From Pelecanus crispus (lineage: Eukaryota; Chordata; Aves; Pelecaniformes; Pelecanidae), in assembly GCF_030463565.1 (NCBI RefSeq), contig NC_134662.1:1736001-1800000 (forward strand): a stretch of DNA of 64,000 nt, read 5' to 3'. How positions within the stretch are numbered: position 1 is the stretch's first letter; each line of letters starts with the position of its first letter. The notes under the pieces are model-generated. The model did not search any database. It worked only from the letters and a program-made list of their open reading frames with translations, and had not been told where the DNA came from. Of the stretch, positions 340 to 44,434 are shown piece after piece. The translations under genes and the position numbers were made by a program.

Positions 340-588
340 AAGTTATCTGCAAAGACTTTTATTAACTTCAAAGTATTAAAAAGCGGCCAAAACCCACAGC
401 GCAGGACTGCCACGGTCCCTGGCTGTGCCACAAACAAGGCACCCAAGTTTCAATAAACAAAAAGCTTCCCAGAAGAACAGCACACATAAAAAGTGCTGCA
501 CCTCCAGCCTTCATGGCCTTCCCACACCTCAGGGGGTTCAGACATCCTTCAGTGCGGCACCAGCAGTTGCCCAGGGCTGGACCTGGGC
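340..588 (-). other. 3' UTR of the class V myosin gene
   Basis: This stretch follows the TGA stop at 589-591 on the minus strand. It has no continued reading frame and ends near an AATAAA signal at 358-363. The length of about 250 bases is short for a vertebrate 3' UTR. An upstream alternative end cannot be excluded. Confidence 0.6.
358..363 (-). terminator. poly(A) signal AATAAA of the myosin gene
   Basis: A canonical AATAAA on the minus strand lies about 230 bases past the myosin stop codon. It is the first such hexamer after the stop, and cleavage would be expected near 335-345. Confidence 0.6.
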
Positions 589-3316
589 TCAGAGGCGGAC
601 AAGGAAGGCCAGGTCGAGGGTTTCAGGGATGCGGAGCTCATCCAGGTGCAGGGGGGAGGGGGTGAAGGGCAGGTGCACAGGGAAGAGGTGGCCAGTGTCC
701 ACCAGGAGCTGGCTGGGTCCCTCTCCATACTGGTCCTGCAGCTGCTTCTGTGGGGACACAGTGTTTGCATTGAGGGCTGCCCCAGTAAGGGGGCCCCTAT
801 GGGACGGTGTGCCCAAAGCACTACACCCCGTGTCCTGCTTACCTCCACGCTGCTGATGAAACTGGGGCTGATGCGTTCCTCCAGCCCAACAGCTGGGGTG
901 TAAGCCCGGAGGATCTTCACAACCTGGAGAAGATGGTGGGGAGCATGAACGGGGAAGGGCTGGGCACATTCAGACACTTCTCGGCATGGCATGTTCCTCA
1001 CCCGAGTGCATCTCTGGTGCACCCAGGGAGGCCAAGGAGTCCCAGGATAGGATGAGTGCCCAGCAGGCAGCGAGCCCCAACCCCCCCAGTACCTGCTGGG
1101 GTGACAGCACTGTGCACAGGCTGCAGAGAGCTCCAGCATCTTCCTCTGTCACCTTCTTCACCTGCAGCAGCTGGGCAGCCTGGACCAGGGGCTCCAGCAC
1201 CTCACAGGCCCCACTCTGCTGCAGCCCCTCTGCCCGCAGCCACTGCTCCAGCTGGCTGACGTTGTACCTGCCCGGGGAGACCAAGTCAGGGGGAGGCATG
1301 GGCCATGCCCCAGCTCCCCCAGGTACCCCTGTCCTGCATGGGGACTGACCTGAGCTGGATGCCACGGCTCCAGGAGCACGTCTCCTTTCTCAGCAGCAGG
1401 TAGTTGAGGGTGGTGCCACTGACAAGGAAGAGGAGCTGGCGCAGGGCCTGGTGCCCCACACTGGGGGCCAGCCCATGGCGGTCCAGCGCTGCACGGAAGG
1501 AGCCCAGCTGCTGCAGCAGCTCAGGCAGGGTGTGAGCAGGGGTTGCCAAGGACCGGCGGTGGCCAGGAGGGCAGGAGGAGGACGACAAGCCCTGTATGGG
1601 CTCGCTTTCCAGCATTGCGGCAACTAACAGGTAGAAAAGGCTCATCATAACAAGGCAGAGACCCTGCATTGTGCCTCGAGCAGCCAGTACACTGCTCCTT
1701 GGCTCTGTGTCCCAGCTGAGGATGCAGGGGCTGATGACACCTCCAGGATAGCTGACCCAGGCTAGCCCAGGGGCTGGCCCTGCTCCATGAGGCTGCAAAG
1801 CAGGGCATGGGGGAATAGATGCAGCCCAAGGTTCCCAGGGTGCTGAGCTCACAGTTCCCAGGGTACTGAGCCCACTTGAGCTCCCCAACCACCTCCCCCA
1901 AGCCAGGAGGCTCAAGGAGCAGATGGTCCCTCATAGAAGAGGGTCCCACAATTCACAGCCTACCTTCCCCCTCTGGGTACAGCCTCTGAACAGAACAGGC
2001 AGTTCACACAGCTGAGCACAGCACTCCCTCCCTGAACAAGTGTCCCATGAGTGCCCTGCAAGCCCCCCAAGCCCAGGCCATACCAATCATGGGTTTGAGG
2101 CACTTCTCGGCAGTGCGGATGAGCTGCTGGTACAGCTGGACAGCCAGGGCACCCAGGCTGCGGCAGGAATTCTGGGGGTCCACATTCTGCAAGCGATGCT
2201 TGTTCTGCCGCGCCGTGTTCCCCTGCCAGTAGCTCTGTGGGCACAGGCTGGGTCAGAGCCAGCATCACCAGGGGACACAGCTGGGTCCCCAAGCAAGCAT
2301 GGAGCAGCATCAGCCCAGCACATCCCTGCCTACCTGGGTTGGGGTCAAAGAGGATGTGGCCCTAGGTGGGGACAAACCCTGTCCCCACTAAGCTCCCACC
2401 CTTCCCAGGGAGATGGCAGACCCCCTGCAGCCCAGCCCTACCTGATCCTGGCTGTACTGGCGCAAGCAGTTCAGGAACCGGCAGGTGTTGGCAAGCCAGA
2501 GTGCCACCATGTTAAAGTCATCACTGTGCTTCTGCAGGAGGGAGCAGAGAGCACTGGGGTCAGCAACGTTCTGGCAGTGACAGCATGGTAGCTCTGCAAG
2601 CCACGCAGAGCTAGCTGCAGCCTGATGAGGGCTGTGGGGGTACAGAGCTGTCAGACCCTCTCGCAGGAGCCCTGTGGTGCCCAGGGGCACCCCTCACCCC
2701 AGGAGATGCTCAGGCTGGACACTGCAGTCAGGCACACACTGTGACCTGGGGGCCAGGCTGCTGCCCCAGTGCCATCCCCACCTTGGCCAGTGAAGCTCCT
2801 GCTCCTCAGCCCAACCCACAGCCTCAAGCCCAGCACCTTCATAACCCTTTTGATGGCATCAATGGCTGCATCCAGGAGCGAGCGGGCCCGTGGCTCATCA
2901 CAGCAGTGGTCTGCATGCCGGAAGCACAGGAAGAGAACGTAGGCTGGCAGGTCTGGGAGCACCCCAGGGATGCTCTGTGGTTTGTAGTCTGCAGGGGAAA
3001 GCAGGCCAGTTGGGATCCAGGCAGCTATGGAAAACTGGTCCCGAGCCAGACAGGATGCTGCCCCAGCAATATGGAAAGGATGAGCCTCATACAGAGGTTG
3101 GCAAGAAACCCTAGCAGGGACCAAGCTGGGGTAAGGAGTCCCCATATCTCCAAACCCTACCTGTGATGATGGCCTTGATAATGCGCCCTTCATCCTCCAT
3201 CTTCCACACTAGCATGGCCTGGGACAGCCCAGTCAGAGATTGGACCGTGGGGGACCGGGACAGGACCACAGCAGATGCTGCCAACTCCTGCACTGGCCTG
3301 GTAGTCTCTCTCTTCA
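589..3316 (-). CDS. MYO5B-like: Myosin globular cargo-binding tail, exons 30-37
   Basis: Exons: 3161-3316, 2837-2988, 2442-2531, 2084-2234, 1350-1623, 1093-1267, 843-923, 589-747. This is the DIL-type globular tail domain of class V myosins, which binds cargo adaptors and folds back on the motor. Family landmarks are present: [92 protein letters not shown] and the closing [16 protein letters not shown]. The linker after IQGLS is [16 protein letters not shown], where paralogues carry a KPTG-(Y/F/L)-RKRSSS phosphosite-like loop, so regulation there may differ. The C-terminus is FLVRL. Confidence 0.93.
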
Positions 3317-6300
3317 CTGGGGGAGAGAAGCACAGGTCACATCCTGCTGTGTCCTGGGCTGTGGGACCCAGATGAGGTCCCCTCAGCTCAGTCCAAGCAG
3401 ATGTTCCCCAGCATCTCTGTCTGGGGGGGACTCTGCTCCCCATGTTCAGGCTGCACAATGCTCCAGCCTCAGACCAGACTGGTGACCCTCCAGCCAGCCC
3501 CATGCCTCCCTCCCATGCAGGCACTTGCCTATGAGCTCCTGGATCTGCTTCGCATAGGCTCTCAGCTGCTTCTTGAGCTTCTGTGTGGTCCTCTCCTGCT
3601 TCTCCAGCTTCTGGGACAGCTCCTGGGCAGGGACAACCCCAGTAAGGCTCATCCAGCCTCCCTCAGCTGGACACCCCTGCAGCACCCACTGAGTGGAGCA
3701 GAGCTGGGGGGATGCAGCAGGGTTCCCCACATTGCTCTGTAAGGGGCTGCTGCAGCTCACCACAGGGCAAGGGGGTGGAAGCAGCCCCAAGCCTGGTCCT
3801 GCCCCGCTCCCCTCCCCGCCCCCCCTTACCCAGTTCTCCTCCTTGAGCTGCAGGACATGGTGCTGCAGCTCTTCCTGCCCCTGGTGCCGCTGCAGGTCCT
3901 GGATGAGGGCTGCCTGCTGCTGGCTCAGCTGCTTGAGTGAGCAGATGTCAAGGTGCAGCCCTTTGATCTCCTCCTCATGCTGCTGCTTCTCCTCCTGCAG
4001 CTGACTCACCAGCAGCCTGCACACATGCACCAGGGGAAACTGAGGCACCAGCCTCCTTCAGCTGCCACACCCCATCCCTTGGGGAGGCTGCTGAGGAGGT
4101 ATTTGTCCCCTAAAGCCTCAGAGCTGGGAACTCTTCCCCCAGCCCAGGCACCCTGAGGGCAGCACAGCCCCAGCTGTGCTAACAGAGCATCTCCCCTCCA
4201 GCTGCACTGAGCCTCAAGCACACGTGGCACAGCCCAGGACCAGGCTGCATCAGCCCTGCCCTCTTAGGAGGCTCCTGTTGAGCCCAGGGCATCCAGTCTG
4301 CTCAGGCAGTCGGTGTGCCTGTGCGCAGAGCAAGGTGGCATGCTCCAGGCCCCCAGGAAAACACAGCTGGGTGCGCTGGAGAAAAGGGAAGGAGAGCCAG
4401 GGCTACCCGACACCCAGCTGGGCAGCGAGGGGCAGGCTGCCCTTGGTCTCCCAGCCCAGCTGGGGATCTGGTGCCAATAGCATGCGAGGAGGTGGCTGCT
4501 TCAAAGAGGACTTGCAGCTGCCCAGCACCACAGCACTGCAGAAGCCAGGCAGCTGCAACCCAAGCTGTGGCTGACTAAAACACCAAGGAAAGCCCCACCA
4601 ACAGTGTGGGTCTGGCAGCCCATTGTAGGGAAACCAGCCTCAACTGGGGACCATCTCCCTGGGACCACGCTCACCTATTGGCAACCTGTACAGCATCATA
4701 TGCATTCTTCAAGTCATCATCCAGTGCAACCTTCTCTGGGCTCCTGCCCAGCCCCAGCATCTCAGCTATGTTCTGCAGCAAGAGGAGAGCAGGGTGAGGC
4801 CAGCGCTGCCAGCCTGGATCAGAGCCTGCTCACAGCGGTGGGGCAGGGGCTCACCCTGCGCTTGAGGAAGTCCAATGGTTTCCTCTCCTCCGGTTCCACG
4901 GGGGCCTTGGACCTCCGCAGCTCCTCCCGGGTCCGGGCCAGCTCCTCGTTGACAGCATTGAGCTGCCCCAGGAGGAGAAGGTACGCCTTCTCAAAGGGAT
5001 CCTGGCCCACACTGCTGTTCAGCGGCACCTCACCGCTGGGCTGTGTCTGCAGCCCCTCTGGCACCAGCTGCCAGTGCTCCTCCAGGCCCTGGGTGCAGAG
5101 ACACGGTTTGGCACAGCAGCCCAGCACTGGGCACTGGTGCCAGAACACCTGCAGGCACCCCTCCCCAGTGGGACCAGCTCCCAGCCAGGAGCCCCAGGGT
5201 ACAGCTGTCCCCATGGCCAGGGGAAGGGACAGTCCACTTGTCAGCCCCACCCCACCATCCCCACCAGTGTCACCACTAGCCTCAGCCTGCTGGTCGGAGC
5301 CATCTCGTGAGGGAGCTGTGGACATGGAAGACAAGCAGCTGCTCTCAGAGCCCAAGAAGCTCTCTGACGAAGGGGACCGTCTCAAGGTGCTTTGCTGAGT
5401 GGGGACAGAAGGACAAGGTTGTTCCCCAACACCCCAAGTCTGAAGTGGGGCAAAGCAGCGACAGCCTCAGGAGGATATCTTGGCTTGGGGATCCCCCAGC
5501 ACGTCAGCTAGGGAGCCCACTGCTGCAGCGGGTGCCCTGGATCAGCCAGCGCTGCCTACTCCCCACAGGGAGCCGAGGGAGAGGTTGCCCTGAGCCCCGC
5601 TGCATCCTTGCCAGCCCCTCACCCTGTAGAAGGCCACCTCATCCCGCAGGTTCTCATAGCCCTGCTCCAGGCGGGTGTACTCCTGCACCAGGCTCTGGTA
5701 GCGCGCCCGCTCCTCCTCCAGCTCCTGCAGCAGCCCCTGGCTCTCCCGTGCCACACGCTGATGTTGCTCTGTGGGGATGGACACAGCAGGGAGTGAGGAC
5801 AGGCAAAGCCAGGACCCCTCTCTGTGAGGGGACATGAGGGAACACACCAAGCCTGCAGGACCAGCCCATCCCAGGGGAATGGGATGAGAGGATTTTGGAG
5901 GACACATTTTACCTTCCAGATCCTGTGACTGCTCCAACATGCGCTGGATCAGGGCATCCCTCTCCTCGCCCAGCTGCAGCTTCACACCTTCCACCTCTGC
6001 CAAGCGCTGCAGGAAAGTAGAAGGGCAGGTACAGCCAGAGCCTGCCCGGGGCCAGCCCTGGCTGCCAGAGGTCTCCTCCAGACACCACACCACAGCAGGG
6101 AGCACGGCATGCTGCCAGGTCCCTGGAGACCCCCGTGGAGCCCTGCAGAGCAAGAGCATCCCCCTGACAGACAGACCTGCCTGAGCTCCTCGACCTCCTG
6201 GGCCAGGCAGCTCTTCATGCGGTGCTTCTCCAGCTCAGCCAGCCGCTCCTGCAGCTGCTGGACCTGGGTGTCACGGGCCGCATCCTCCCTCAGCCGCTGC

Positions 6301-9300
6301 ATCTCAGCCTGCAGGCGCTGCACCTCTTCAGCATGGGCAGCGTTCAGCCCCGAGAGCTGCTCCACCAGCCGCTGCTTCTCCTGGGCCTTGGGCCAATGGG
6401 CAGAGCACATCAGGCAGGAACAAGGACATACCCCATGTGTCTCCCATCAGTGAGAGCCCATGCATACTCAGGCTGCCCTTCTGCAATGAGCTCCATTTCC
6501 CACCCATCTGTTTGGAGCCCTGAGCCTCCTGTATCACCTCAAACAGAGCTCAGGCCTAGGACAGCAGCTCTCCATGACATGCCATCCCACATGGAGCCAC
6601 ATATGAGCTTTACCATGCCTTTACAGCCCATTACCCACCTCCTGGCCAGCCCCAACAGCAAGATTTTCCAGCCCTACTTCCCCCAAACCCCAGACACAGG
6701 ATGACACCAGAGGAGCCCTCTCTCCCCCTCCACAGACACCCCCAGAAATGGAGTGGTGACAGCCGAAGCAGAGATGCTCACCCAGATGGCAACAGCAGAT
6801 GCTGCCGGCAGGAGCATGGTAGGAGCGTCACACCATGACAGAACTGTTCCCAGCACATGACACTGTGCTGCAAGGCTTTACCCAGCCAAGGCCATCCCCA
6901 GGGCCACCAGCCCCACATCCATAGGGAGCATTGAAAACCCAAGAATGAGACCCAGATGCACAACTCCTGCCTGGGGACACATGCCAGGCAGGGTCAGCTC
7001 CCATCCCAGGGCTGGGAGAGGACTGAAGACAAGAGCAGGCATGGTGTTGGCTGCACAGAGTGTTAAGAAGTGATCAGCAAAAAGCAGCTGCCCCACACCC
7101 TGGGACCCACAAAGGGCTGAAGCCAGCACCCACCTGCTCATCCAGCCTGCACTGCAGCTGTATCACCTTGATCTCCATGCCCTTGTGCAGCTGCTTGTAG
7201 TGCTCGACTGAGCGTGCCTCAACGCGCAGCCGCCGCAGCTCCTGGCATGCCCGCACCCGGCGGTAGCAGCACTGCAGGTAGATGACAGCCCCACGCAGGC
7301 GGGCATAGTGGGTCCGGGCCAGCCAGCCCCGGACAGCAGCCTGGATCACCACGGCTTTCTGGTGCCACACCATCTGTGCAAGGAGAGATAGGGCACTGGC
7401 ACCGCCAGCAGCACAGCCCCCCCAGCTGGGATCGGGACACCCACTGCCCTGCCAGGCTCCTACCTGTTGGTAAAGATGCCGGGCAAACATGCCCCGGGCA
7501 AAGGCTTGGATGGTGATGACAGCCTGGCGCATGCATAGGTAGGAGCGCCGGGCCAGAACCATCCTCAGGGTCTTCTGCAGCACCACAGCAGCCCTGGTCC
7601 TTCGCAGCATCCTGGCAGATCTGCAGGGAGGGCAGAGAGCTGGGCAGAGGGTGGCAAAGCCTGCAGCCCAGCTCATACCACAGGGACACTAGGGTCAAAG
7701 CCCAGAGCCAGTACAACTGCCAGCTCATCCCAGGCTGAGCTCTGTCTCAGCTCATTGCAGCTCCCTCCAAGCCCTGTTACCTGCTCACCTCCGGGCCAAC
7801 ATGCCCCGGGCATGGCGCTGCAGGCAGACTGCCGCGGCACGTGCCCGTCCAAAGCGCCTCCGTGCCAGCCAGCCCCGCAGATGCCTCTGCAGCAGGGTGC
7901 AGGCTGCCCTCAGCCGCTGGTACCGCAGCTCCTCCAGGTAAGCCACTTGGCCAGCCCGGAAAAAAACCTTGCTCTTCCCACACTGGTACTTCCTGGGGTC
8001 CTGCGTGCAAAGATTGAGTCAGCCCCAGGGACAAAGCATACCCCAACCAAGCTCCCCCAAAAGCGATGCTCCTCACACCACTGATGTCCCCATCCAACCT
8101 CCCTGGAGGCAGAGTTCCTCCCCAGCTCACTCATTTCTGTACCCCACTGGGCACCCACACAAGGGGAGAAGCATCTGCAAGGGATACTCTGGTACCACAG
8201 CTGCACCCCCCAAGCAGGACCCTTACTTGGAGCAGCCTCTCAAGGGCAAGGCTGCAGATCTGCTTCTCATGGGTGCCCATCAGCTCCTCTCTGCTCACCA
8301 GAGCCCTGTACCTCTCTAAGAACTCCTGGTATGTCCACCTGTGGGGGACAGAGGGGGGTCAGAGGTGCTGTGGCCAGAGAGAGGGAGAGCACTGAGGGTG
8401 CTGCTGAAGCAGGGGGGTACCTGGAGGGGTAGCCTGAGGCACTGATCCGGATGGTCTCCAGGACCCCGCAGGCTCGTAGCTGCTCCACTGCTCGCCTGGA
8501 GTCAAACCTAGGGCAAAGAGGGGCTGATGTAGAATGGGTCGCAGCCAGCTTGGCACGCTCCGAGCTATGCAGGACCAGGGCAAGAGGGACAGCAGTGCCC
8601 CACCATGTCCCCATCCCCTCCAGCCTCCCTGGCCAGGCACTCACACAAAGGGCTTCTTGCCATCATTAGGTTTGATGCAGCGGACATAGTGCGGTGTGGT
8701 GCTGCCCAGCATCTCCATCAACCGGTTTAGGGAAGCTTTGAACTGCAGAGGACAAGGCAGGCATGGTCAGGGCCAGCAGGAACATCCTGGGGCTTGTGGG
8801 GTTCCCCAGGCCAGGACACACACAGGTCCCCTTGGGGCTACCCCAGCCCTGGTTGTCTGGGGCCAGCCCACATTTCCCCCCCAGCCCATACCTGGCTGGA
8901 GATAGACTTCTTGCTCTTTTGGCTACTGGGCATCGATCTGCGGCTGGGGCGACCAGCCATCCTGGGCCCACTGGACCTGCGGGACTGCAGGGACATGGGG
9001 CCATCCCCTTCCTCCAGGAAGAGCTCAGCAAGCAGGGCAGACTGCACAGAGCAGAGCTGTGAGAGCCTGGCAGACATTGCAGCGAGCATCACCCAATACC
9101 CAGAGAGCCATCACCACCAGGAGACACTGCCCCGAAAGTTCACAGACCCCACAGAGGCCAGCCCAGCGCACAGTCCTCCGCCCTGCTACAGCCCAGATGT
9201 GCCAGATCCAGCTGCACCCCTGCCTGCTGCTTCCCACAGGAAAAGCTAAGTGCAAACCATAGACACCTTCCCAGGTGTGCTTGAGAGCCCTCCAAAGTGT

Positions 9301-12300
9301 CCCTTACCTTCTGCCAGGGCCACGCAGGGTGGAAGGGAGAATGACAGTGTTACTGACCTGGAAGCAGCAGGACCCTCCAGCCCTCTCAGCAGGGACATGG
9401 CCAAGGTGCCCCCCAAGATTTGGAAGCCCAAGGCAGAGGAACAGGGTGGAGAGCACCCACATCTCAGGGCACCTTGACCATCCCAGCACTGCACGGGGCT
9501 GTGCCAGCAGGCAGACAGGGGTTTACCCTGCATGGCTTACACCTCCTACACCATCAGTCCTTCCCAGCCCCAGGCTCCTGGGGCCACAAGCCAGCCAGGC
9601 TCTGCCCTACATTGCCCCTGCACAGGGTGGCTCTCACCTTGCTGGCTCGCAGCAGCCCCACCAGCTCCTCAGGGACAGCATCCCTGTTCTTCTCCACAAA
9701 CCCATCACACTGGTATTCCACCTGGCAGGAGACAAGGCAAGCACCAGCATCAGCCTGCAGCTTCCCATACTGGTGTGGTGCAGGGCTCTGCTTGGACACA
9801 GTCCAAGGCTTTTGGAAGAAGTCCTTGCAGGAGTCAGAGCTGGTGGTGGCCACGCTCCTGCCCTGCTGCAAGGCTACTGCGGGGAACCATCACAGCCACA
9901 GTTTCCATATTTTTACCCTTGCTTAAAGAGTTGCAGCCCAGCACTTTGCAGCAGCAGAGCCAGCAGGATCCACTTCCCAGCCTGGGAGGGTGCAGACAGC
10001 TGCCACAGCCACTCAGGACAGCGAGAGGCTGCAGGAGCTGCCACCACCAGCTCTAGACAGCACAGGCTGGGTGCCCATTGGTGCAGAGCCCTTGCCACCC
10101 ATGGCTGTACTGCCACAGCTTTCCCTACCTTGCCAGCGAAGTGGCAGACAATGAAAGCATCTGTGGGCCTCTTGGGCTTCTGGAAGTGGGAGCTGCCGAG
10201 ATGGGTCTGGTAAAGCTTCTGGGCCCAACTCCCATCACTGCCTTGGGGCATCTGAAAAGCAAATGGGTCAGAAGGGGCAGCAGGGACAGGGGGGTCCCCT
10301 GCGTGGCCACGGCAGCCTGCTCCCAGCACCCCTTGCCCACCTTGCACTCCTCATTCAGCAGGTTCAGGATGCCAAGCTGGCCCTCGATGAGCTCAATGCA
10401 TGGCTGGTTGTCACAGAAGTCAACGAAGACCCAAGGGATCTCCTCGGTCACATACTCCTCCTGCTCCAGCTTGAAGACATGCTGGAGGGCAGGGAGAGCA
10501 GAGCAGGACTGAGCCAGGAGAGCAGCCCTACTCCTGGAGCAGGAGAACTTTGGGAGAAAGGAGGGGACCATGCCCAACTCCAGCAGCCTCCCAGAGCCCC
10601 ATGTTTGCAGGGATGGAAGCACCAGCCACATTCAAGGCAGAGCGCACCAGAAGCAACATTGCAGCAGGGATGTGCAGGGCCCACCCTCACTAGCTCCCAT
10701 CAAGGACACACATCTGGGTGACACCCACCAGGTTGAAGAGCTGCTGCAGCTTCTCATTGGCATAGTTGATGCAGAACTGCTCAAAGCTGTTGAGATCAAA
10801 CATCTCAAACCTGTGGGCAGCAGAGGTCTGCCTGAGGCAGCTGCTGGGCAGAGCCACCCCAGCCAGCCATGAGCTCCAGGCACAGCCACCCAACTGGCCC
10901 CACTGCAGGGACAGGTACTGCCCCACGTCCCAGCTGGAGCAGTTGGTGGCTGCAGACCCACAGCCACAGCTGATGCAGAAGCAGGACCATGTTGTTCCAG
11001 GCAGCCCAGGAGAGGGGAGCTGCTCTTACCCGTAAATGTCCAGGATGCCAATGGAGGTACGGTGGCTCTCCAGCGACCGCAGGGCACGGTTGACCCTGCT
11101 CACCATCCACCTGAAGACCTGCCCATACATATGCTTGGCCAGGGCATCCCGGGAGTTGAGTGCTTGCTGCCTGGAGAGGGGCTTCAGATAGGTCTCACCA
11201 GCAGTGACCAGCTTGCGGTGGCAGAGCCAGCGCATCACCTGCGATGCCTCGATGCCCAGCAGTGCACAGAACAGCCCTAGGGCCTCATCGGCAGGCTGCA
11301 AAGGGACAGACCCTGTCACCGCAGTATTGCTGAGGTGTGGCTCCTGCAGCCAGCACAGCTCAGGGGCCAGTTTGGGATGCAGGGTGTGGGCAGCAAGCTC
11401 TCGCCCACCTCCACGAAGCAGCCATCCCCACGGCGGTCCCTCCCTCTGACTGCAATGTTGCCCAGGTGCAGGATGGCAGCCAGGATGCTGAACAGCTCCA
11501 GCTGGTCAGCCTCAGGGACACCTGCAGTCACAGCACAGGCATGAGGGACTTCCCAGGATTCCCCCACCCCATGCTGCCCCGACCCCCTGCATCACACAAA
11601 CCGGAGGGATGGAAATGGCCAGTAGATAGCCGGGCTCCCCAGCATGGGGACGCCTGGCACCAGCACTCCTACACCAGCATTGGGGTGAGGGCAGTGGGAC
11701 AGCCAGCCCTGGGGACCAGCCCTGCCTGCCCTCTCCCCACCCGTGCCCAGCCAGGACAGTACCCAGGACCGAGAAGGCGTGCCGCGTGCTCTCCAAGTCG
11801 GCTGCATCGTCGGTGCGCTGGGCAGCAGTGCACTGGCCCTGGCAGGTGTAGTGGAAGGCCTCTGCCCCACCTGCGGGCGAGATGGGCAGGTTGTGCTGGT
11901 TCACAGCCTGACACCACAGAGCTCCCAGCCACCCTTATCCCACCCCAGGGTGCCCAGCAGCAGCAGAGCCTCCATCACCCGGCTGGGGAGGGCAGGAAGG
12001 CCTGGCACTGCCCAGCATGGGACAGGCTGGCAGCAAGCTGTGCCATGGGGCTCATCGGGAGAAGTGGGGGCACTCACGGAGACCCAGGCCCTGGAGCTCA
12101 GGCAGGGCGGCTGAGGCACAGAGCTGGTAGAAGATGTGGTAGTTCCTCTCCACTTTTGCCTGTGGATGAGCAAGAAAAATCACTGAGAAGCCAGATCACC
12201 TCGGGCCACCCTGCTCCCTCTGCAGCAGTGCTGCAGCCCCAGGTCTGGGAACAAGGGACACCTTCCCCTCTCCCAGCTCAACTCAGCAGTGCTGAGGTTG

Positions 12301-15300
12301 CTTCCCTGGGAGATGCCCAGGAGGAACGTGCTCCTGCTCCAAGGACTGGGGCTGCCACTCAGCCCTGTCCCCATGCCACCCCAGAAACCCACCTGGAAGG
12401 TGACACGGGACTTCTCCAGCAGGTAGGTTTTGATGGTGGCCCCTGTGACATGCGCTTCGCTGAAGCCGATCTCTATATACTTCCCAAAGCGGCTACTGTT
12501 GTCATTCCTGGTTGTCTTTGCATTCCCAAAGGCCTGGCAGGGAAGGAGGGCGGGAGGTTTTAGCTAGCCCCAGATCTCCAGGTACTCTGGAGAAGTTCAG
12601 TCCCTGCCACCCATTTTACAGGGGGAGACAGAGATGGCATCACATCAGGGATACCAGCCATGAGGAGCACGGGGAGAGCCTGCAGGGACACCCCAGCTGT
12701 CCCCATGCAGAGCCTGGGGACCCAAGGAACCTACCTCCATGACAGGGCTGGAGGCCAGCACCTTTCCCTCCATGCTGGAGTCCCCTAGGCAGCCCCCAAC
12801 AGTGGTGAAGTATCTCATGGCATACTTGGCCGACACAGTCTTTCCTGCACCCGACTCACCACTGATGATGAGGGACTGGTTCTTCCCAAACCTGCCAGAG
12901 AGGGACATGAGCTGGGCACAGCCTGTGACCCAACAGGACCGCTTTCCACAGACATGCCACAGTCCAGAGCAGGCTTCAGCCCTTCCCCACTGCAACCCCA
13001 GGGATGCTCCCATGTGAAGCTCGCACCTCACCATCTGCTTGTATGCCTCCTCTGCCAAAGCAAAGATGTGGGGATCCATGTCCCCCACTTCACGGCCACT
13101 GTAGGCATAAATCACCTCCTCCTCATAGATGGGCAACGGCTTGTAGGGGTTGATGGCCACAAGGATGATACCTGGAGGAAGAGGGTTGTGCAGAGAGCAG
13201 GGACAGGAGGGGCACGTGTCCCAGGGAGCTGCAGGGAAGGGGCACAGGCTGGGGAGCAGGAGGAGGTGATGGGGCTCACCACAGTAGGTGTAGATGGCAT
13301 TGGCTTCCAGGAAGCGCCGGCGGAGCGAGTGCAGCACAGCCGGCTCGTGCAGGTAGCTCAGAGCCACCAGGTCATCGGCATCTGAGAGGTAGTCAGGGTT
13401 GCAGAGAGGTGGCAGCTGGAACTCGATGGGGTAGGCCAGTGCCTGCAGGGATGGAGATGGAGCAGCACACGTGCTGAGTTGGGTCAGCCGGCCCCACAAA
13501 GGCAGGATGGGTCTGTGGGGACCAGCACAGCAGGAGGGATGCTGTCTGCAGGCCATGCTCGGGCTGTTTGTCACCAGGAATCATAGCCCAGCCAGCACGT
13601 TGAGCTGAGCTGGAGGCCTTTTGGGAAGTCAGGCAGGAGCAGGCAGTGAGGACCAGCTCACCGGGCAGTCACAGAACATGGGGCACAGTGAGCCAGACAC
13701 AGTCTGGGCTCCTGATGCTCAGACACCCCCAGGCAATGTTTGAGCTGAGGAGCCCAGGCTGGTTTGGGGGTGCAGAGGTGAACTATCTCCCATCTGGGGA
13801 TGTCCAACCATGTGGCAAGCACAGGATGGACCCGCTGGGCTGCACAGCTCCAGCCTTACCGAGCCATCTTCCAGGCGGAGATGGAGAATGGCATCTCCTT
13901 CCTTGTAGCTTCTGGTGATTTCTGCCACCCTCCAGACCTCGACACAGTCAGGGATCCACACCCAGGCACCCTGCAGGGACATGGAAGGGAGGGGACCCCT
14001 GCAGAGAGCCACGGCACGCATCTGGCCACCAGCCTCCAAACCAAGCACTGCAGCCCTCCCCATGGCTCTCACTTAGGACAGTCAGCCTGGTGCTCAGCAT
14101 CACCACAGCAGGGCAGGCCATGGGACCCAGCACCCTGCTAGGTGCCCCACAGCCCCTTGGCTCCTGCAGGCAGGGGTCCTACCCAGCTGCTGTCCAGATG
14201 TGCGGGAAGGTGCCTTTGCTGGAGCCCTGCTTCTCCCCAGCTCTGCTGCTCACCCCAGGAAGGTCAGCACCTCTCCTGCCCTCGGCACAGGGGGCTGTCT
14301 CTGCCCCATCCCGAGGATGCAATCACCCCTGCTGCTGCGGGGAACGTTTCTGGAAACACAGAAGATACCAAGCTGGGCATTTCTGAACTCCCAGCGTGCT
14401 GGGGATGCAGCTGCATGGTTTGGCTGGGCAGAGATGAGGCTCGAAAGCAGATGCATGCAGTACAGATCCTTTGTAACTACTGGGTGAATCCAGACACTGT
14501 CACCAGCTCTGCAGACCCAGCTACAGGCCAGAGCGCAGGGACAGTGATAAGAAAAATCACCCTGTGCCCTTTTCACCCCCCAAATTTGCAGCTCCCTGGG
14601 GCCAGCCACTGCAGGCAGCCTTGTGCAAGGGACCAGCTGGCACCCATGGGACCAGTGCTCCCTGCCTCTAGCACCCTGCTTGCTGGAGGCTGCTGTCAGC
14701 CTCAGTTTCCCCTCTCTGCAGACAGCATGTGCTGATGAAATGGGAGTTCTGCAGCATGGTGAACTCCAACTTCCCTCTGCACCTGGACCCGAGCACTAAT
14801 ACATCCCTCACACCTGGAAAAAGCCTCTTTGGAGCCACCCTGCAGGGAGCAGGATCCCACACTCAGCAGGACTGAAGCAGCACACCACCACAGGGGTAGA
14901 GAGGTAAAAACTGGGCCAAAACCCCTCACAACCCTGCTGCAGGCACCCCATCAACTGGCAAGAGGGTGAATACCTGGCCCTAAGCTGGCACAGGGTGACC
15001 TCATGTGCTCCCAGGCTGAGGAACCGCAGCTCCTGCTGCCCCCGCTCCTGGCACGGGCGCCCGCAGCCCCGCTCTGCGCCAAGCTGCCAGCCACCTTCTC
15101 AGCAGCTTCTGCCAGACTGCGGGGAACAGGGGCTGCTTCCAGGAGGCCAGTACCTCCTGCTGCTCTGAGCAGGCAGAGATGAGGCCATACTGCAAGCTTA
15201 AAAAGGTGGTGGGGGGGAAGGAATCGGTTGCAGATTTGCTCTCAGGCTGAGGTGGGAGCACGTATGCTTCCACAAACTCTGGGAGCTATCGCAGAGCAGC

Positions 15301-16761
15301 GACAGGGCTCTGACACATCCCACTCCTGCCCCAGTGGGCTGGGGCCAGCCTCTTGCTAGAAACCAGGGCCTGAAAAACCGTCCTGGTCGTGCCGATTTTG
15401 CAAATCCAGGGAAGTCGGCTTGCAGCAAATGCTTCCAGGTCTGCAGTGTGCGGAGCACGTGTGTTAAGGCATCATTAAAGTTGATCAGGCAAGCACTGAA
15501 TAGGGGGGGAGTCTGGGGAGGGAGAAGGAAGGGGCTGAACTTTGGGTTCACATCCAAGGAGTGATCAGAAGCCTGAGCGCCTGACTTTGCAGCTGAAATA
15601 AAGAGGGCAGGAAGGGGGTCGGGTTGCAGGGGCCGCTCAGCGGAGAAGCGACAGGAAGCCATTATCTTTTATGAGCAGCAGCCACTGGGGGGAGCGAAAA
15701 TTGCACGATGTACAGCTTCCCGGCAAGGCACTAACGGATTTTAGTCTGAAATCACAGCTGGACAACAGAGCATCCCTGCCAGCGCGCCCAGCTTGCCCCT
15801 CAGCCACTCCCCAGCTCTCCTCCAAGGGAGCGCCAGGCTGGCGCTTGAGCGGGCACCAACTGCGAAACCGTGCGGCCACGCAGGCTCCGCAGGGCGCTTG
15901 GCTGAGGCAGTTGCGCGGCCGGTTCGGTCCCAGCCCGGCCAGCTCTTTGGGACAAGGCAACCCACGGTGCCTTAAGCACGGAAACCCTCCTTGCCTCGCC
16001 CAGGTTGGCACCTCAATCGCACCACAGCGACGAATGCCGCACCTCCGGCCTCTGCAGAAATACCAGCACCCTCCGGCCCGCAGGCTCCTGTTGTACGTCC
16101 AGGGAGAAAGGGCCGTGCTTAGGGTCTGCCCGACAGCTGCAGCCATCATTTTTGATACACTGCAGCAGAAGTGAGAAGCCAGAGCCTGTCCTGCCGCCTG
16201 CTCGCAGCGGAAGCATCCTTGACAGGCAGAACTGAACTAAGGCGGAGGGAGGAAGACATGGGCCAGGATCCAGGGACAAAAAAAGCAGCTTGGCCAGTTG
16301 GGCAAGAAGCAGGACAGATGGGTGCCCAGGCAGCACCAAACCCTTCTTCTCACCTGTGACCAGCACCCCTGCTAGGTGCTGCACTTGCCATGGGTCCCTG
16401 CATGTCAGGGAGCCCTACGAGCAGCTGGGGTACAGCAGCACCCACGCAAGGCAGCCCACCCATGGCTGGACCCATGGCTGAGGTACCACCAGGCACCCTG
16501 CACCCCACAAGGTGCCACCAACCCAGGCACCAGCGGGGAGGAGACCCAGGGGGACACCCAGGCCACAGCACCTGCAGTCCCCGGGGTGCTGAGCCCCCGG
16601 GAGAGGCACAAGACCCCCCCGGGTCTGCAACAAGCACCCCAGACCCGCGGGCAGGGCCCCCCCGGCTGCAGAAGGAGACGCCCTCGCAGCTCCCTCCGCG
16701 GCACCCCGGGGTGGGACCCCCCAGGCCCCCTCACCTGCACGTACGGCTCCCCCGCGGCCAT
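589..16761 (-). CDS. MYO5B-like: Class V unconventional myosin (MYO5B-like paralogue), whole coding gene
   Basis: This is an actin-based processive motor of the family that carries vesicles and recycling endosomes. Thirty-seven exons can be read, from the ATG at 16759-16761 to the TGA at 589-591. Their phases all agree and sum to 5238 bases, or 1745 residues; human MYO5B is about 1850 and MYO5C about 1740. The product starts MAAGEPYVQ and has a motor (about 1-750), six IQ motifs (about 753-900), a coiled coil (about 934-1333) and a globular tail (about 1334-1745). The GESGAGKT P-loop is at 160-167, [10 protein letters not shown] switch I at 211-220 and DIYGFE switch II at 435-440. The neck end ([11 protein letters not shown] and MEIKVIQLQ) resembles MYO5A and MYO5B more than MYO5C, but overall divergence is high. 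The assignment to class V is secure. The exact paralogue is inferred from linkage to MBD3 and MEX3D. Confidence 0.94.
3529..6380 (-). CDS. MYO5B-like: Myosin coiled-coil and mid-tail exons 22-29
   Basis: Exons: 6177-6380, 5913-6006, 5623-5768, 5251-5394, 4855-5088, 4675-4772, 3830-4016, 3529-3622. Glu/Gln/Leu heptads run through exons 22-24 and 28-29, for example [15 protein letters not shown] and [11 protein letters not shown]. Exons 25-26 are Ser/Pro-rich and probably unstructured. The acceptor of exon 22 could also lie six bases upstream, at 6386, without a change of frame. Exon 29 ends at a GC donor (AG, then GCAAGT). The total of about 400 residues is shorter than in MYO5A or MYO5B. I see no equivalent of the family block around the alternatively spliced exons, nor of the segment that follows it, so either exons have been lost or small ones were missed. 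Confidence 0.85.
6387..7133 (-). other. Myosin intron 21
   Basis: This 0.75-kb intron lies between the last IQ exon and the coiled coil. It includes a Pro/His-rich plus-strand ORF with no family resemblance. No cassette exon in a compatible frame was recognised, although paralogous genes have additional coiled-coil codons at this place. Confidence 0.5.
7134..8000 (-). CDS. MYO5B-like: Myosin converter end and lever arm, exons 19-21 (six IQ motifs)
   Basis: Exons 7789-8000, 7464-7620 and 7134-7373. Exon 19 opens with the converter end, including the conserved [16 protein letters not shown]. Six IQ motifs follow, at [65 protein letters not shown] and [13 protein letters not shown]. Six is the class V number, giving the long calmodulin-binding lever that allows about 36-nm steps. 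The third motif has Met in place of the usual Gly after Arg, and the sixth is degenerate, as it is in paralogues. Confidence 0.93.
8227..13970 (-). CDS. MYO5B-like: Myosin motor domain exons 2-18
   Basis: Exons, 5' to 3' on the minus strand: 13860-13970, 13280-13442, 13027-13171, 12735-12891, 12393-12533, 12078-12159, 11763-11870, 11409-11521, 11030-11295, 10729-10810, 10341-10481, 10129-10251, 9638-9721, 8892-9041, 8645-8742, 8421-8507, 8227-8338. All have AG/GT borders and matching phases. The ATP site is complete (GESGAGKT, switch I and switch II). The TEDS-rule position, 16 residues before DALAK, is Glu, as in other class V motors, so no heavy-chain kinase switch is implied. Exon 15 is the loop-2 region; it is Arg/Lys/Ser-rich and little conserved, as expected of an actin-contact loop. 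The motif [12 protein letters not shown] and the SH1/SH2 helix [13 protein letters not shown] are intact. The motor should be an active ATPase. Confidence 0.93.
13971..16734 (-). other. Myosin intron 1 (2.8 kb)
   Basis: The intron separates the 27-base first coding exon from exon 2. It has no recognisable exon or transposon. A lower-GC island around 15330-15600, with AT-rich words such as CATTAAAGTTGATCAGG, stands out from GC-rich flanks and could be an enhancer, but nothing proves it. Confidence 0.5.
16735..16761 (-). CDS. MYO5B-like: Myosin exon 1 (start codon, 9 codons)
   Basis: The exon encodes MAAGEPYVQ and ends CAG before a GTGAGG donor, in phase 0. Human MYO5B and MYO5C likewise begin with a short first coding exon of the form M-x-x-x-E-L/P-Y-x-Q, which supports this start. 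The ATG sits in a good Kozak context, with GCC before it and G after it. A 2.76-kb intron separates it from exon 2. Confidence 0.9.
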
Positions 16762-20264: not shown

Positions 20265-21301
20265 TCATATATAGTAAAAAGTCTTTATTAAGAAGGCTTT
20301 GAAGTCAAAAAATAAAACTCTTGATACAATTTTCATAACCGTCAAGTCAGCTCAGCAAATATATAATCAGTACTTTAGCCATGTAAGGTTAAAGGTCCGT
20401 TATTTTCTTTTTAAAATAAAATATATTTTAGTTTTTAAAATTTATTCAATAAAGTACATATTTTCCTATAAATTCCCTACATATACATAAAGAGGTAAAA
20501 AATAAAAAAATAAAACTAAGAAAAAAAACCAAACCAAACCAAAACCAACCACAAAATAAAAAGGAGCTAGAAATCTGTCTGGTTTTTGCGACATGGCATG
20601 TTAACTGTGCCCCCTCCCTGTCCCGCGCACTTCCCCGCCTGGCCCGGCCCCTCCAGCCACGACCCCCGACCTCTCGTCATGCGTTTTTGGGCAGTTTTCA
20701 CATTGGCAAAATAGAAGATAGACCTGCGTTACAAAAAAAATATATATATATTTATAGAACCATCAAGAATCATCCAAAAAAATAACTACATACAAAAAGA
20801 ACGACAACAAAAAAATTATAATAATAATAGAATGATTTTAAAAAAATAAAAGACAACCCTTGCGTGTCCTCAAATAAAAAGTGCAACCGGACCTTTTCTT
20901 TCTGTTTATTTAACTTTGCAAACTGAATACTGTTATTTGGGAAGGACTGTTGAAGAACAGCTGGGCTTCCTCCTCCCAGCCGCTGGGTGAAGAGTTAAAG
21001 CTATTCTGTAAACATCAGTTTCCTCCTCTCCGCAGTTTCACACCCCTCTTCCTCGTTGTCTTCGTCTGCCCCCTCTTCCCCACCCCTCCCGACCCCCTGT
21101 ATTTCGGCCACCCTCCCGCCCCGCCGTCCTGCCCTCTCCGCCTCTCCAGCCAGCAAGCAGCAGCCTCTCCTTCCCCCCCCCTCCCCGTGCGCCCATCGGA
21201 TCCGTTATTAAATAAAAAGGTTGATTTAAACAGTTTGAAGTCCTTAAAAAGCTGTGTTGGGGTGGAGGGGAGGGCTGGCCGCCCCGGCGAGCCGCAGCCA
21301 G
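20265..21301 (-). other. MEX3D: 3' UTR of MEX3D
   Basis: About 1 kb of strongly U/A-rich mRNA sequence follows the TAG at 21302-21304. It contains long U tracts, a TATATATATA run (20739-20750) and many TTTATTTT words. The block is sharply bounded by GC-rich DNA. MEX3 mRNAs are known for long conserved 3' UTRs that carry their own control sites. The AU-rich composition suggests post-transcriptional regulation, possibly by MEX3 proteins themselves. Confidence 0.7.
20284..20289 (-). terminator. MEX3D: Poly(A) signal of MEX3D
   Basis: An AATAAA on the minus strand lies at the far edge of the AT-rich block that follows the MEX3D stop. The base composition changes sharply to GC-rich just beyond it (below 20260), as expected at a 3' UTR end. 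Several internal AATAAA-like words allow earlier ends. Confidence 0.6.
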
Positions 21302-22566
21302 CTAGGAGAAGATGTGGATGGCTTGAGTGGCGGGAGTGTGGCACGCGGGACACTCGGGCTCGGCTTTGCCGCAGATGCGCATGGCGCACTCCATGCAGAA
21401 GAGGTTGTGGCCGCAGGGCACCAAGGCGGCGATCACCTCGCTCTCGAAGCACACCATGCACTCGCGGGAGCTCTTGCGGTGCCCGTCAGAGCTGCTGGAG
21501 TCGGTGGGCGAGCCCGAGGCGGCGGAGATGCTGCCAGGCAGGGAGGAGGAGGAGGAGTAGCCGGTACTGTTGGAGAAGGAGGACAGAGAGCCTTGGGTGG
21601 GCAGCCAGGACAAGGTGCTGACGGGGTCGCTCTGGATGCGGCGCGCTAAGGGGTGGTCCAGGGCCGCGCCGCCGCTCTCGGGGAGGGTGGGCGAGTGGCG
21701 CGGCGTGGCCGTGCCGCTGTTGCGTCTCTGCGAGCCGCTGACGGAGGAGCAGCTGCTGAAGGCTTGCAAGGGGTTGCCCGAGCGCTCAAAGGGCGACCAG
21801 ATGGTGGTGGGCGTCGTGAGGTCGAGGGCCAAGAAGTCGAAGCCGAAGTCGCACTCCTCCGAGCCCAGAGGGGCCGGGGGCTCGCTGAAGGTGAAGCCGC
21901 TGCTGGTGCTGTAGGGGCTGGTGGGGCTGGCGTCCGCCACCCGCCCGCTGTAGTAGGACTCGGTGGAGGTGCTGCCCAGGGAGCTGAGGCTGTCGTTGCG
22001 GAGGGCGGCCGAGGGGCGGCGGGCAGGGTGGGGGGCCTTGGCCCACAGGCTGGCCGTGCTGCCCTGCAGGTCGAGGCAGACGTCGGTGCCGTTGGAGTGG
22101 AAGTCGTTGTCGGCATTGACGTCAACGAAGGAGCCTGTCCGCATGGTGATGTGCGCCTCGATCTCCTCCCTAGCCCGGTCCACGTTCTCGGGCATGCCCG
22201 TCACCTCGAAGACGGGCTCCTTGTCCCGGCTGGGTGTCACGATGTAGGTGTGCGTCTGCTGCTGGATCCGCTTGATGGTGGCTCCCTTGGGCCCCACCAC
22301 CAGCCCCACCACACGGTACGGGACCCTCACCTGGATGGTGGTCTGTCCCGGCAGGTTGGGGGGCCCCTGCATCGCTCCCGTCAGCCCGTTCACTTTGTTG
22401 CGTGTCGCCCGGATCATGGAGAAGTGCTCGGCGGCCGAGAGGATCTCCCTTTTCGCCATCTCCACGTCCTCCTTCCTCCCAGTCACGATGAAAACAGGCT
22501 CCTCGCCCCTGACTGGCGTCTTGATGTACGTGTTGGTCTTGGCACGCAGGGCTTTGATTTTGCAGC
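21302..22566 (-). CDS. MEX3D: MEX3D exon 2
   Basis: The acceptor CTCTGCAG precedes GCTGCAAAATC. The exon completes KH1, then encodes KH2 and a Ser-rich linker with probable phosphosites ([18 protein letters not shown] and runs of Ser near the RING). The RING follows, with Cys pairs in [17 protein letters not shown] and CPAC. The [14 protein letters not shown] and [10 protein letters not shown] stretches are typical of the MEX3 linker. Confidence 0.95.
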
Positions 22567-25500
22567 CTGCAGAGCAAGGAGAAGGGGAAAAAAATGACAC
22601 GTCAAAGCCGAGACCTCGTGGGGACCCCCTCCCGGGATGGGGAGGTGCAGGACCAGCAGGAACCACCAGCTCCCTTTGGTTCTGCACCTGCAGCATGGGC
22701 ACCCTTGGAGCGAGGGGTCCCCGCCACCTCAAAGGCAGCCAGGGGCTCACTGCTCGGTGCTGGGGGCTGCACTGCCTCGTCCGAGACGCACCAGGCTCCG
22801 GGCACCGGCCTGACCCTCTGCCACCACCTCCTCTACACCACGGTGGGGACTGAGGACCTGCAGGATGCAGCCCGGCTCCCGAGGGCTGGGACAACGCGTG
22901 GGCAGAGAGGGGCCAGGGCAGGCAGCCGTGGGGGCACTTTCTGGGCCGTTGAGGGGATAGGAAGCCCGGTTCACTCGACAGGTATTTTAAGGAGGTGCAA
23001 GGGAAAAAAAAGAAGACACTGAAGATGGAAGGGAAGGAAAAGGCTTGTGTGGAACCTGCAGGTTTGTCAACGCCTCTCAGCCAGCAGCCAAACCCGAGAA
23101 ACAGCCCTGGCTGCACCCCAACGGCAGCAGCGACAGCCCCGGAGGGACGGGGGAGCCAGGGCTCCCCGCGGGCGGGCGGCACAGGCACCCCCCGCCTCCC
23201 TCTCCCCGGCCCAAGGGAGGAGACCCCAGGGCAGGGAGGCTGCGCCCTCGCCGGCTGGGGCAGTGGTGCTCACGGGGCACCGGCTCTCCCCGTTCTGGAA
23301 AGACCTGCTTCCCCTGCACGAGGAACGTGATTCAGCAGGCAGAGCCCAGGCTGGGATGCAGGAGACCGGGGCTTCGCTGCCAGCTCTGCCGTCGCCTCGC
23401 ACAACCCCGGGCAGGTCCCTGCCCCTCTCCTCCTGCGGGCGAGCCGGGCTCCAGCTGCGAGTCCCCGCAGCACCCGTGCAGCGCAAGGCTCCTGCCCTCC
23501 TTCGGGACTGGTCACCGCTGCTCTTGCGAGGCACCGCCTCGGGCTGCAAGCGCAGCACCGCTCCCTGCAACCCCAGCCCTGCTAATTGCATCCGCTCTGC
23601 CTGCGCTCCAGTGCACGCACTTAATTAAATTCACATGAGCCAGGCGCACCGCACCGGGAGCTCAGCCTGGCTGGCCGCCCTCCACTCCCAGCACACGAGG
23701 GCGAGTGATCCCCTGTCTCCCACCTCCCACGCACCCCCTGAGCTTTGCAGGGCACCCAAAGCAAAGCCAGGAGCCCGCAGGGACGGAGGCTGCCCGATCA
23801 GAGCCCCAAGACTGTCCCTGTCCACTGCAAATGCTGCTGCTGCAGATCCACATCAATAACTAGCCACACGCCAGCGGGGAGAGCTCGACTCCTTGCAGAC
23901 ACGGCCAAGGCAGCCGCAAGCGCCCGGCTGGCTCCTCCGCAAACGGCTCGCTCGGGGCACTCCTCCTCCTCTTCCCAGACGCTCTCCGAGGAAGGGCAGG
24001 GCCGCTCTTCCAGCTGCAAGGCTGGAGAAGGGAGAGCCCCGGGAGGTTGAAGGGACTCAGCCAGGGTTGGGGTGGCGCAGGACTTTCAGGCAGCTCCGTC
24101 CCAACCGGGCAAATCGGCCCGCTCCCGCTAGCAGCTGGAGAGCAGAGCCCTAACGGGGGCCGTGCTATTCCTGGAGACCCGAGTGCGGTGCATTTACCAG
24201 GGCATTAAGCACCACAAATAACAAGAAGGAAAAAAACTGTCAAATGAAGTGAGCAGCAGCTGTCCTGGGTGTCCCTGCACGGCCGTTCGGCAGCACCAAC
24301 CCCTCCGACAGCCACATCCAGGGAGCCAAGGGGTGATGACACCCGCCTCTCCGGACACTTCCTCAAAAAACCTCGAAAGCAGCTTGCACCAGCCAGCGCG
24401 GCCCCCAGGCTGCCGTGGGGCGCTGGCAGCTCCACGCGTGCCCTGCCCGCTGCCTGCAAAGGCGCCAGGATGGCGACAGGCAGGTCGGAGCGGAATCTGG
24501 GAGGGGAGCAGGCAGACGAAGAGCCAGGCAGAGCTGGGGAGGCACGAGACCTGCTGACATCTCCCCCCTAAGCAGGGAAACCCTCTGGATTTCATACAAG
24601 CCAGGCTGAAAGCATTTGAAGGCCACCTCCAAGCACTTGTTGCAATGACACAAATGTTCCTCCCGCCCTGCATTGCCCCAGGGACTGGGGCAGCGGGACA
24701 AGCCCAAATTCAAGCCTTGTGCGACCAGCCGGGCTCGGCGAGGCAGAGGCAGGGCTGGGGGTGGCACAGAGCTGCCCTGTTCCCTGGGGCCGGGGAAGCC
24801 GCCGAGCGGCCGTGGGGACATGCAGTGGAGGAATGTGGGTGGAGAAGGGTTTGTTCAGGCTTTTCCTAATTTAGGACAACAACTGGAAGGTGTATTTATG
24901 GCTGGGGGCATATGGTGGGGAAAGCCATGGCCCGGTCACTGGGGCAGAGCAGAACCAGCACCATCAAAGGTGAAGTTTGTTTAAGCGTGTGCCAGCTTCT
25001 GCGTGGCTGTCCAGAGCGAGGTGCCTGCGACTCCCACGCTTCCCTCCCTGATTTATTCTGGTACCTGCTATAAGCTCTCCCCCTGCTCCGCTGCTTGGCA
25101 AACCGGGACAAGCACGGTGCAGGCGGGCAAGGGCAGCCAGGCCGGGAGCCACCGCGGGGCTCTGCCGGTGCCTCCCGGGGATGCCAGCCTCACACCCGAC
25201 GTCCGAAATTTGCCCTTCGCAGCAGGAAGCGGCAATTTCAGGATCCAAAGGTATCGGCAGCTGCCAGGAGCTGCACACAGGAGCTGCTTGGGAGCCGTGT
25301 CCCACGGGTGGCACGGCGCAGCGAGGCTCTTCCTCACCCTGCTCCATTGCGCCAGCTCCACCGGTGGGACTGAACTGATGCTACGGCAGCGCAAAATGGA
25401 GGAAGAGTTTATCCGGCTGCTCCTTGTAAGCCCCTCCTAGGGGCAAAACCAGAAACCTGGGTTAAAAATTAAAGGGGTGCCCGGCTTGGCCAGCTCCACC

Positions 25501-32311: not shown

Positions 32312-32870
32312 GGCGGCGGAGCGGCGCTGGCCGGTGGGAGCGGGCCGGGGCGGTGGCGGTGCCCGCCGCACGCCGCTCTCTGCGCGCCCCCCGCCGCGCC
32401 GCCCCCGCCCCCGCCCCGCCCCGCCCCGACAATGGGCCGCGCCCCGCTGCGCGCATGCGCCGGCCGCGCCCCGCCCCCTCCCGCGCGGCCCCGCCCCGCC
32501 GCAGGAAGGGGGCGGCCACGCCCCGCCCCCGCCGCGCGCCCCAGCTCCGCCCCCGCCGGCGCCCGGACGCGGCCCGGCCCTCGGCTGCCGGGAGCGGGGG
32601 GGCCGGGAGAGGCGGGGCCGCGGGGCTGCCGGTGGGCTCCGGCGCGCCTCTCCCCGGCCCACGCGGCCCCGTCGGCCCCGGCTTCCACGGGAGGCAGCGA
32701 GAGCGCAGCGGAGCCGCGCACGGCTTTGCGCAGCCCGTTCCCGGAGCGGAGCAGAGCGCAACCGGGCAGCGGAGCGCCCGCCGGGGCGGCAGCTCCCCGC
32801 GGCGCCCGGGAGGCTCCTCCCGTCCGCCCGTGCCACGCACGCCGGGACCACGGCGCTGATCGGGCGCGCG
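31400..32870. promoter_or_regulatory. MEX3D: CpG island at the MEX3D 5' end
   Basis: Very high GC and frequent CpG span exon 1 and about 550 bases upstream of the ATG. GC boxes (CCCCGCCCC types) are dense at 32390-32560. No TATA box is seen, so a dispersed CpG-island promoter is likely. The exact start is unknown. Confidence 0.7.
31795..32311 (-). CDS. MEX3D: MEX3D exon 1
   Basis: This exon codes for residues 1-172 plus one base. The first 140 residues are low-complexity Ala/Gly/Pro/Glu sequence, with one conserved helix-like island, [16 protein letters not shown]. The conserved [19 protein letters not shown] block leads into KH1. The donor is GTAACC. The exon lies inside a CpG-dense island, and open shadow frames on the opposite strand are a composition effect. 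Confidence 0.93.
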
Positions 32871-44241: not shown

Positions 44242-44434
44242 CTATACATTCTCCATCTCCTGGTCATGGTCCTGCTCCTCCTCCTCCTCTTCCTCTTCTC
44301 CTTCTTCCTCGCCTCCCTCTTTCTCTGAAGGAGCTTCCCCATCTCTTGCTATTTCCTCTACATGGGCAAGCATGTCAGCCATCAGCGCTTCCTCCAGCCT
44401 CTTTCGCACCTGCTGCACCAGCTCCTCTTGCTTC
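44242..44434 (-). CDS. MBD3: MBD3 exon 6 (coiled coil, acidic tail, stop)
   Basis: The exon opens RKQEELVQQVRKRLEEAL, the coiled coil that heterodimerises with GATAD2A or GATAD2B. It then runs into a Glu-rich tail and ends MENV before TAG at 42 hundred higher coordinates, precisely 44242-44244. A GTAATG donor lies five bases after the stop, so the transcript continues into at least one non-coding exon, as in mammalian MBD2/MBD3 genes. Confidence 0.96.

What the first reader, a model, noticed from the sequence alone, without database searches (positions are those of the whole stretch)
589..16761. A class V myosin next to MEX3D and MBD3: a probable whole-genome-duplication partner of MYO5B that is absent from the human locus
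The sequence shows a complete class V myosin on the same strand as MEX3D and MBD3. In human, MYO5B, MBD2 and MEX3C are all on 18q21, while MBD3 and MEX3D are at 19p13.3, where I know of no myosin V. The simplest account is that the ancestral trio was duplicated and birds kept this fourth myosin V while the mammalian line lost it. The protein is full length with an intact motor, so it is not a pseudogene.
Basis: partly seen in the sequence, partly recalled or inferred. Interest (0 to 1): 0.75.

Follow-up and report, generated by a model that had tools for sequence, protein, structure and literature searches.

The report
Fourth class V myosin gene
This genome, very probably a bird's, carries a complete, fast-changing fourth class V myosin motor gene, the segmental-duplication twin of MYO5B, beside MEX3D and MBD3, a spot where humans are not known to have a myosin.

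Summary
Minus strand 16761..589 encodes a complete class V myosin: 37 exons, 1747 aa in my tidied model, no internal stop or frameshift. Motor nucleotide-binding motifs are intact; six IQ motifs and a DIL/globular tail follow. MEX3D and MBD3 lie on the same strand.

The same genome has three other class V genes: MYO5A and MYO5C in tandem on C7, MYO5B on C46. The window gene is sister to the (bird, human) MYO5B pair; placing it inside MYO5B is rejected by AU in six of six tool-derived runs (0.00025-0.0086), though not always by the SH test.

Decisive: MYO5-MEX3-MBD-TCF-ONECUT keep order and relative orientation on C20 (here) and C46. So this is the segmental duplicate of MYO5B, most likely from 2R. 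Mammalian loss rests on prior knowledge; no other vertebrate genome could be searched.

New: the tail keeps the Rab11-site residues checked but changes three of eight SPIRE/melanophilin-site residues, predicting altered activation. New member of a known kind; no description seen in the paper listings searched.

The parts
589..16761 (-). Whole coding span of the fourth class V myosin (called MYO5x here), 37 exons, ATG 16761 to TGA 589
7940..16761 (-). Motor domain (exons 1-18 and part of 19): [23 protein letters not shown] intact
   Evidence: genome bounds approximate
7134..8000 (-). Neck: six IQ-pattern matches (exons 19-21), same spacing as bird MYO5A
3529..7373 (-). Coiled-coil region (exons 21-29), shorter than in MYO5A; joins of exons 23-27 uncertain
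589..3316 (-). Globular tail / DIL domain (exons 30-37); Rab11-site residues kept, three SPIRE/melanophilin-site residues changed
358..363 (-). AATAAA polyadenylation-signal match 226 bases past the stop
21301..32899 (-). MEX3D (exon 1 within 32899-31793, exon 2 from about 22552); syntenic anchor
   Evidence: bounds approximate
44245..58106 (-). MBD3; syntenic anchor (5' exons of the model uncertain)

Best explanation
The gene is a protein-coding fourth vertebrate class V myosin. It was made together with its neighbours by duplication of the chromosome segment that also carries MYO5B, most simply at the vertebrate (2R) genome duplications (segmental origin shown by collinearity and tree; the date is inferred). 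It has stayed in the lineage of this genome and was lost on the mammalian side (loss rests on established knowledge of mammalian gene content). Mechanism, inferred from residues: a two-headed, calmodulin-bearing actin motor with an intact ATPase site. Its tail can still dock Rab11-type vesicles as MYO5A and MYO5B do. The SPIRE/melanophilin groove and one residue of the tail-motor contact have changed, so it is probably switched on differently from its sisters.
For: 1) Intact 37-exon frame, 1747 aa; 33 of 36 introns share column and phase with bird MYO5A, so it is not a retrocopy. 2) Three other class V genes in the same genome. 3) Sister to bird+human MYO5B in six of six tool-derived runs (LG, Q.plant, LG+C20, Dayhoff-6 on the concatenation; LG, LG+C20 on the tail); nesting inside MYO5B has AU 0.00025-0.0086. 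4) Five families (MYO5, MEX3, MBD, TCF, ONECUT) in the same order and relative orientation on C20 and C46. 5) P-loop, switch I and switch II intact; 311 of 366 motor columns invariant in six other sequences are kept (0.85), about what fly keeps in the same leave-one-out test (0.857). 6) W1711, Y1719, Q1753 and E1791 kept; F1591V, E1595N, Y1596S and E1789G changed (residue roles from passages of PMC5021521, except Y1719, recalled).
Against: No orthologue from another species and no transcript could be obtained, so purifying selection and expression are untested. The terminal branch is long (0.60-0.72 against 0.056-0.059 for bird MYO5B plus a 0.13-0.15 MYO5B stem, concatenated amino-acid runs), GC3 is 0.777, and 55 of 366 otherwise invariant motor sites differ: constraint may be relaxed. 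The SH test does not reject nesting inside MYO5B for the tail alone (0.107, 0.119) nor (0.081). Window+5C is not rejected by AU in 4 of 6 runs (range 0.040-0.127). With recalled fly as outgroup, window sister to (5A+5B) is not rejected (AU 0.062); motor alone supports window+5B only 68.4/71 and the neck alone does not resolve it. Tail scores for MYO5B and MYO5A are close (416 and 410 bits). C7 gene order differs from C20 and C46. Bird MYO5B itself has F at Y1719, so single residues are weak predictors.
Confidence: 0.82

Rival explanations
1. A later, sauropsid- or bird-specific duplicate of MYO5B that moved next to MEX3D.
For: MYO5B is its closest relative; the SH test does not exclude nesting for the tail alone.
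Against: Nesting with bird MYO5B is rejected by AU in six of six tool-derived runs (0.00025-0.0086) and (2.6e-8, with recalled human 5A and 5B). A later jump would not recreate five-gene order and orientation.
Confidence: 0.04
2. Same segmental duplicate, but now decaying: an intact-looking gene with little or no function.
For: Long branch, 55 of 366 otherwise invariant motor sites changed, GC-rich composition and CpG ratio of only 0.47-0.50 around the start.
Against: 1747 open codons, 36 usable introns and intact nucleotide-binding motifs after an old split. Neutral decay over that time should leave stops (inference).
Confidence: 0.07
3. An old duplicate closer to MYO5C, or to the MYO5A+5B stem, grouped with MYO5B by chance.
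For: Window+5C not rejected by AU in 4 of 6 runs; window sister to 5A+5B AU 0.062 with recalled fly.
Against: Window+5B is the best topology in the unrooted runs and in the fly-rooted concatenated tree; the collinear partner segment carries MYO5B.
Confidence: 0.06

Closest known systems
MYO5B (vertebrate class Vb)
   Same: Closest by tail score (416 bits to 4j5m, MYO5A next at 410) and tree; collinear neighbourhood; Rab11-site residues.
   Different: 50-51% tail identity, hardly above MYO5A's 49-50%; several-fold longer branch; three SPIRE/melanophilin-site residues changed.
MYO5A and MYO5C
   Same: Same domain order, six IQ pattern matches (compared with MYO5A), 33 and 30 of 36 intron positions and phases.
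   Different: Separate clades. MYO5C has C at two of the Rab11-site residues (W1711, Y1719) that the window gene keeps.
SPIRE3 (partner family of MYO5)
   Different: An actin nucleator, not a motor. No link to this gene has been shown, and the window tail's SPIRE site is altered.

Membership tests
Class V myosin | Myosin motor with intact P-loop, switch I, switch II | tested here: met
Class V myosin | Six IQ motifs in the neck | tested here: met
   Six pattern matches at the spacing of bird MYO5A (the sixth matches only because the pattern allows C at its last position); Pfam reports 2 stretches passing alone
Class V myosin | Coiled-coil stalk for dimerisation | tested here: inconclusive
   Crude heptad scan gives 878-971 and 981-1053 but also flags stretches inside motor and tail; joins of exons 23-27 uncertain
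Class V myosin | C-terminal DIL / globular tail | tested here: met
   DIL 106.8 bits; solved MYO5B, A and C tails are the top hits
Segmental (2R) duplicate of MYO5B | Sister to MYO5B, outside the bird+human MYO5B pair | tested here: met
   AU rejects nesting, SH not always
Segmental (2R) duplicate of MYO5B | Conserved neighbourhood with MYO5B | tested here: met
   Five families, order and orientation
Segmental (2R) duplicate of MYO5B | Present in other jawed vertebrates; absent or decayed at human 19p13.3 | not testable with these tools
   No other vertebrate genome held; one viral scan (tail alignment) and one prokaryote scan (exon 10) confirmed no relative
Rab11-binding MYO5 tail | W1711, Y1719, Q1753, E1791 (MYO5A numbering, counted back from the C-terminus) | tested here: met
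   4 of 4 kept; binding itself not tested
SPIRE/melanophilin-binding MYO5 tail | R1528, I1535, K1539, N1590, F1591, D1592, E1595, Y1596 | tested here: not met
   5 of 8 kept; F1591V, E1595N, Y1596S; binding itself not tested

The most novel reading that the evidence does not exclude
A lineage-restricted Rab11 motor whose SPIRE/melanophilin switch has been lost or re-aimed, so that sauropsids run a second MYO5B-type recycling route with its own activator (perhaps another lineage-restricted partner such as SPIRE3), which mammals dispensed with.
Probability: 0.2. Interest if true: 0.75.

Novelty: new member of a known kind. Interest (0 to 1): 0.52.

Why it matters
The three-member MYO5A/B/C view is drawn largely from mammals. 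A fourth member gives a natural comparison for what MYO5B can do without. It supplies the missing MYO5 of the MEX3D-MBD3-TCF3 segment, and it makes two questions testable: why mammals lost it, and whether Rab11 docking can be kept while the SPIRE/melanophilin site changes.

Tried and rejected
Retrocopy or processed pseudogene: rejected by 37 exons and shared introns (both gene models were made with the same MYO5A guide, which leans them towards agreement). Collapsed or mis-assembled MYO5B: rejected because MYO5B is on C46 with different sequence. W-linked MYO5B gametolog: a chicken paper lists W-linked Myo5bl beside MBD2 and TCF4L (PMC9103786, one passage), but this gene lies in the MEX3D/MBD3 context and falls outside MYO5B. 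Chicken MYO5BL (gene 430574, PMC5176321, one passage) could not be assigned to a locus. Teleost myo5bb, named in PMC3621135, could be a candidate orthologue; not testable here. Relatives in viral and prokaryote collections: none confirmed, in one scan each. KIND-domain (SPIRE-type) hits at C2, C8 and C1 could not be resolved to SPIRE1/2/3. Structure prediction was not run.

Papers: ten searches, using MYO5D, MYO5BL and myosin-Vb-like spellings, ohnolog terms and others. No description of a fourth vertebrate class V myosin was seen in the listings; two of them were capped (20 of 5,488 listed; 10 of 53), and one search found nothing. PMC3621135 read whole: names myo5a, b and c in vertebrates. 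PMC2375034: 12 of 16 places, no statement on a vertebrate class V count seen. PMC5021521: 12 of 62 places. PMC11231147: 12 of 24 places and 2 of 2.

Full report
What is there. The minus strand of 16761..589 reads as one gene. I tidied the coiled-coil joins by hand: 5241 coding bases, 1747 aa, TGA at 591-589. Donors are 35 GT and 1 GC of 36, acceptors AG in 36 of 36. Pfam finds Myosin_head (840 bits), IQ and DIL (107 bits). Six IQ-pattern matches lie at the same spacing as in this genome's MYO5A; the sixth needs a C that the pattern allowed. An AATAAA lies 226 bases past the stop. MEX3D and MBD3 follow on the same strand.

The genome. The window is C20:1736001-1800000 of a 1.31 Gb, 310-contig assembly. 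It is very probably a bird: its MYO5A is identical to the solved 2dfs chain (chicken, recalled) over the first 103 residues, compared by eye. DIL-domain exons give 10 matches: C7 (two adjacent genes), C46, C20, plus C3 and C11, which I take as non-myosin DIL genes. Spliced models on C7 are MYO5A (1855 aa) and, beside it, MYO5C (1737 aa, coiled coil uncertain). Parts of MYO5B come from C46: exons matching 6-12 and 19-21 and most of the tail, without its last exon.

Tree. With only tool-derived sequences (four genes of this genome; solved mammalian 5A, human 5B tail, human 5C), the window protein is sister to (bird 5B, human 5B) in six of six runs (concatenated: LG, Q.plant, LG+C20, Dayhoff-6; tail alone: LG, LG+C20). 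The split of window+5B from 5A+5C has SH-aLRT 91.6-97.3 and UFBoot 88-97. AU: window inside 5B 0.00025-0.0086; window+5A 0.0016-0.0486; window+5C 0.040-0.127, not rejected in 4 of 6. The SH test is weaker: inside-5B is not rejected for the tail alone (0.107, 0.119), and window+5A and +5C are not rejected in any of the six. An earlier tail tree gave 88.8/86. Adding recalled human 5A, human 5B and fly gave 99.1/99 unrooted and 98.4/88 with fly; by block with fly, motor 68.4/71, tail 92.2/75, neck unresolved. With fly, window sister to 5A+5B was not rejected (AU 0.062) and the deep root was undecided.

Synteny. On C20: MYO5x(-) 1.737-1.753, MEX3D(-) 1.758, MBD3(-) 1.780-1.785 (matched exons), TCF(-) 1.817-1.821, ONECUT-type CUT(+) 1.982 Mb. 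On C46: CUT(-) 0.897, TCF(+) 1.653, MBD(+) 1.887-1.898, MEX3(+) 2.920, MYO5B(+) 3.231-3.326 Mb. Order and all five relative orientations agree. C7 holds MEX3, MYO5C, MYO5A, CUT and TCF copies in another order; C22 holds a MEX3 copy and no DIL hit. This is the pattern of a duplicated chromosome segment, and the recalled human positions (18q21, 19p13.3, 15q21) fit. Dating it to the 2R duplications is inference.

Is it alive? The frame, splice sites and nucleotide-binding motifs are intact, and 33 of 36 introns match MYO5A in column and phase, 30 of 36 MYO5C. Of 366 motor columns invariant in six other class V sequences, 311 are kept (85%); left out in turn, fly keeps 85.7% and the vertebrates 97.5-100% (three of the six are recalled). 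The branch is long, GC3 is 0.777 against 0.507 and 0.386, and G/A/R/P residues make 26.8% against 19.8% and 16.9%. So the protein is fast-changing, perhaps partly through base composition, but its frame is not broken. No orthologue or RNA was available.

How it probably works. Using residue roles from passages of PMC5021521, the tail keeps W1711, Q1753 and E1791 of the Rab11 site, and Y1719 (my recalled addition); MYO5C has C at W1711 and Y1719, and this genome's MYO5B has F at Y1719. In the SPIRE/melanophilin site 5 of 8 residues are kept; F1591V, E1595N and Y1596S are changes at positions where the other seven sequences have F, E, and Y or F. E1789, at the tail-motor contact, is G (on an alignment that includes recalled human 5A, human 5B and fly). 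I therefore predict Rab11-vesicle docking with altered activation. This is inference.

Literature. In the listings seen I found no account of this gene; PMC3621135 gives three vertebrate types. PMC11231147 reports SPIRE3 kept in birds and reptiles and lost in mammals and euteleosts, a suggestive parallel only. Genome databases may well already carry a gene model under a generic name such as myosin-Vb-like (recalled, untested).

Verdict. Observation confirmed; interpretation supported for origin; mammalian loss and distribution across birds untested here.

Noticed in passing
window 17397-19085: Minisatellite array (33-115 bp units) beginning about 640 bases upstream of the myosin start codon.
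   Followed up: no
window 58808-59887: GC-rich tandem repeats (17-115 bp units) upstream of the MBD3 exon 1 model.
   Followed up: no
window about 115-265: Sequence resembling the 3' end of an avian CR1 repeat (recalled) past the 3' end of the gene.
   Followed up: no
G000:C7:14464256-14613905: MYO5C and MYO5A lie head to tail on one strand, about 4.3 kb apart.
   Followed up: partly
G000:C2, C8, C1 (KIND-domain hits): KIND-domain exons at three loci, possibly SPIRE genes; a third SPIRE would fit the sauropsid SPIRE3 report.
   Followed up: partly
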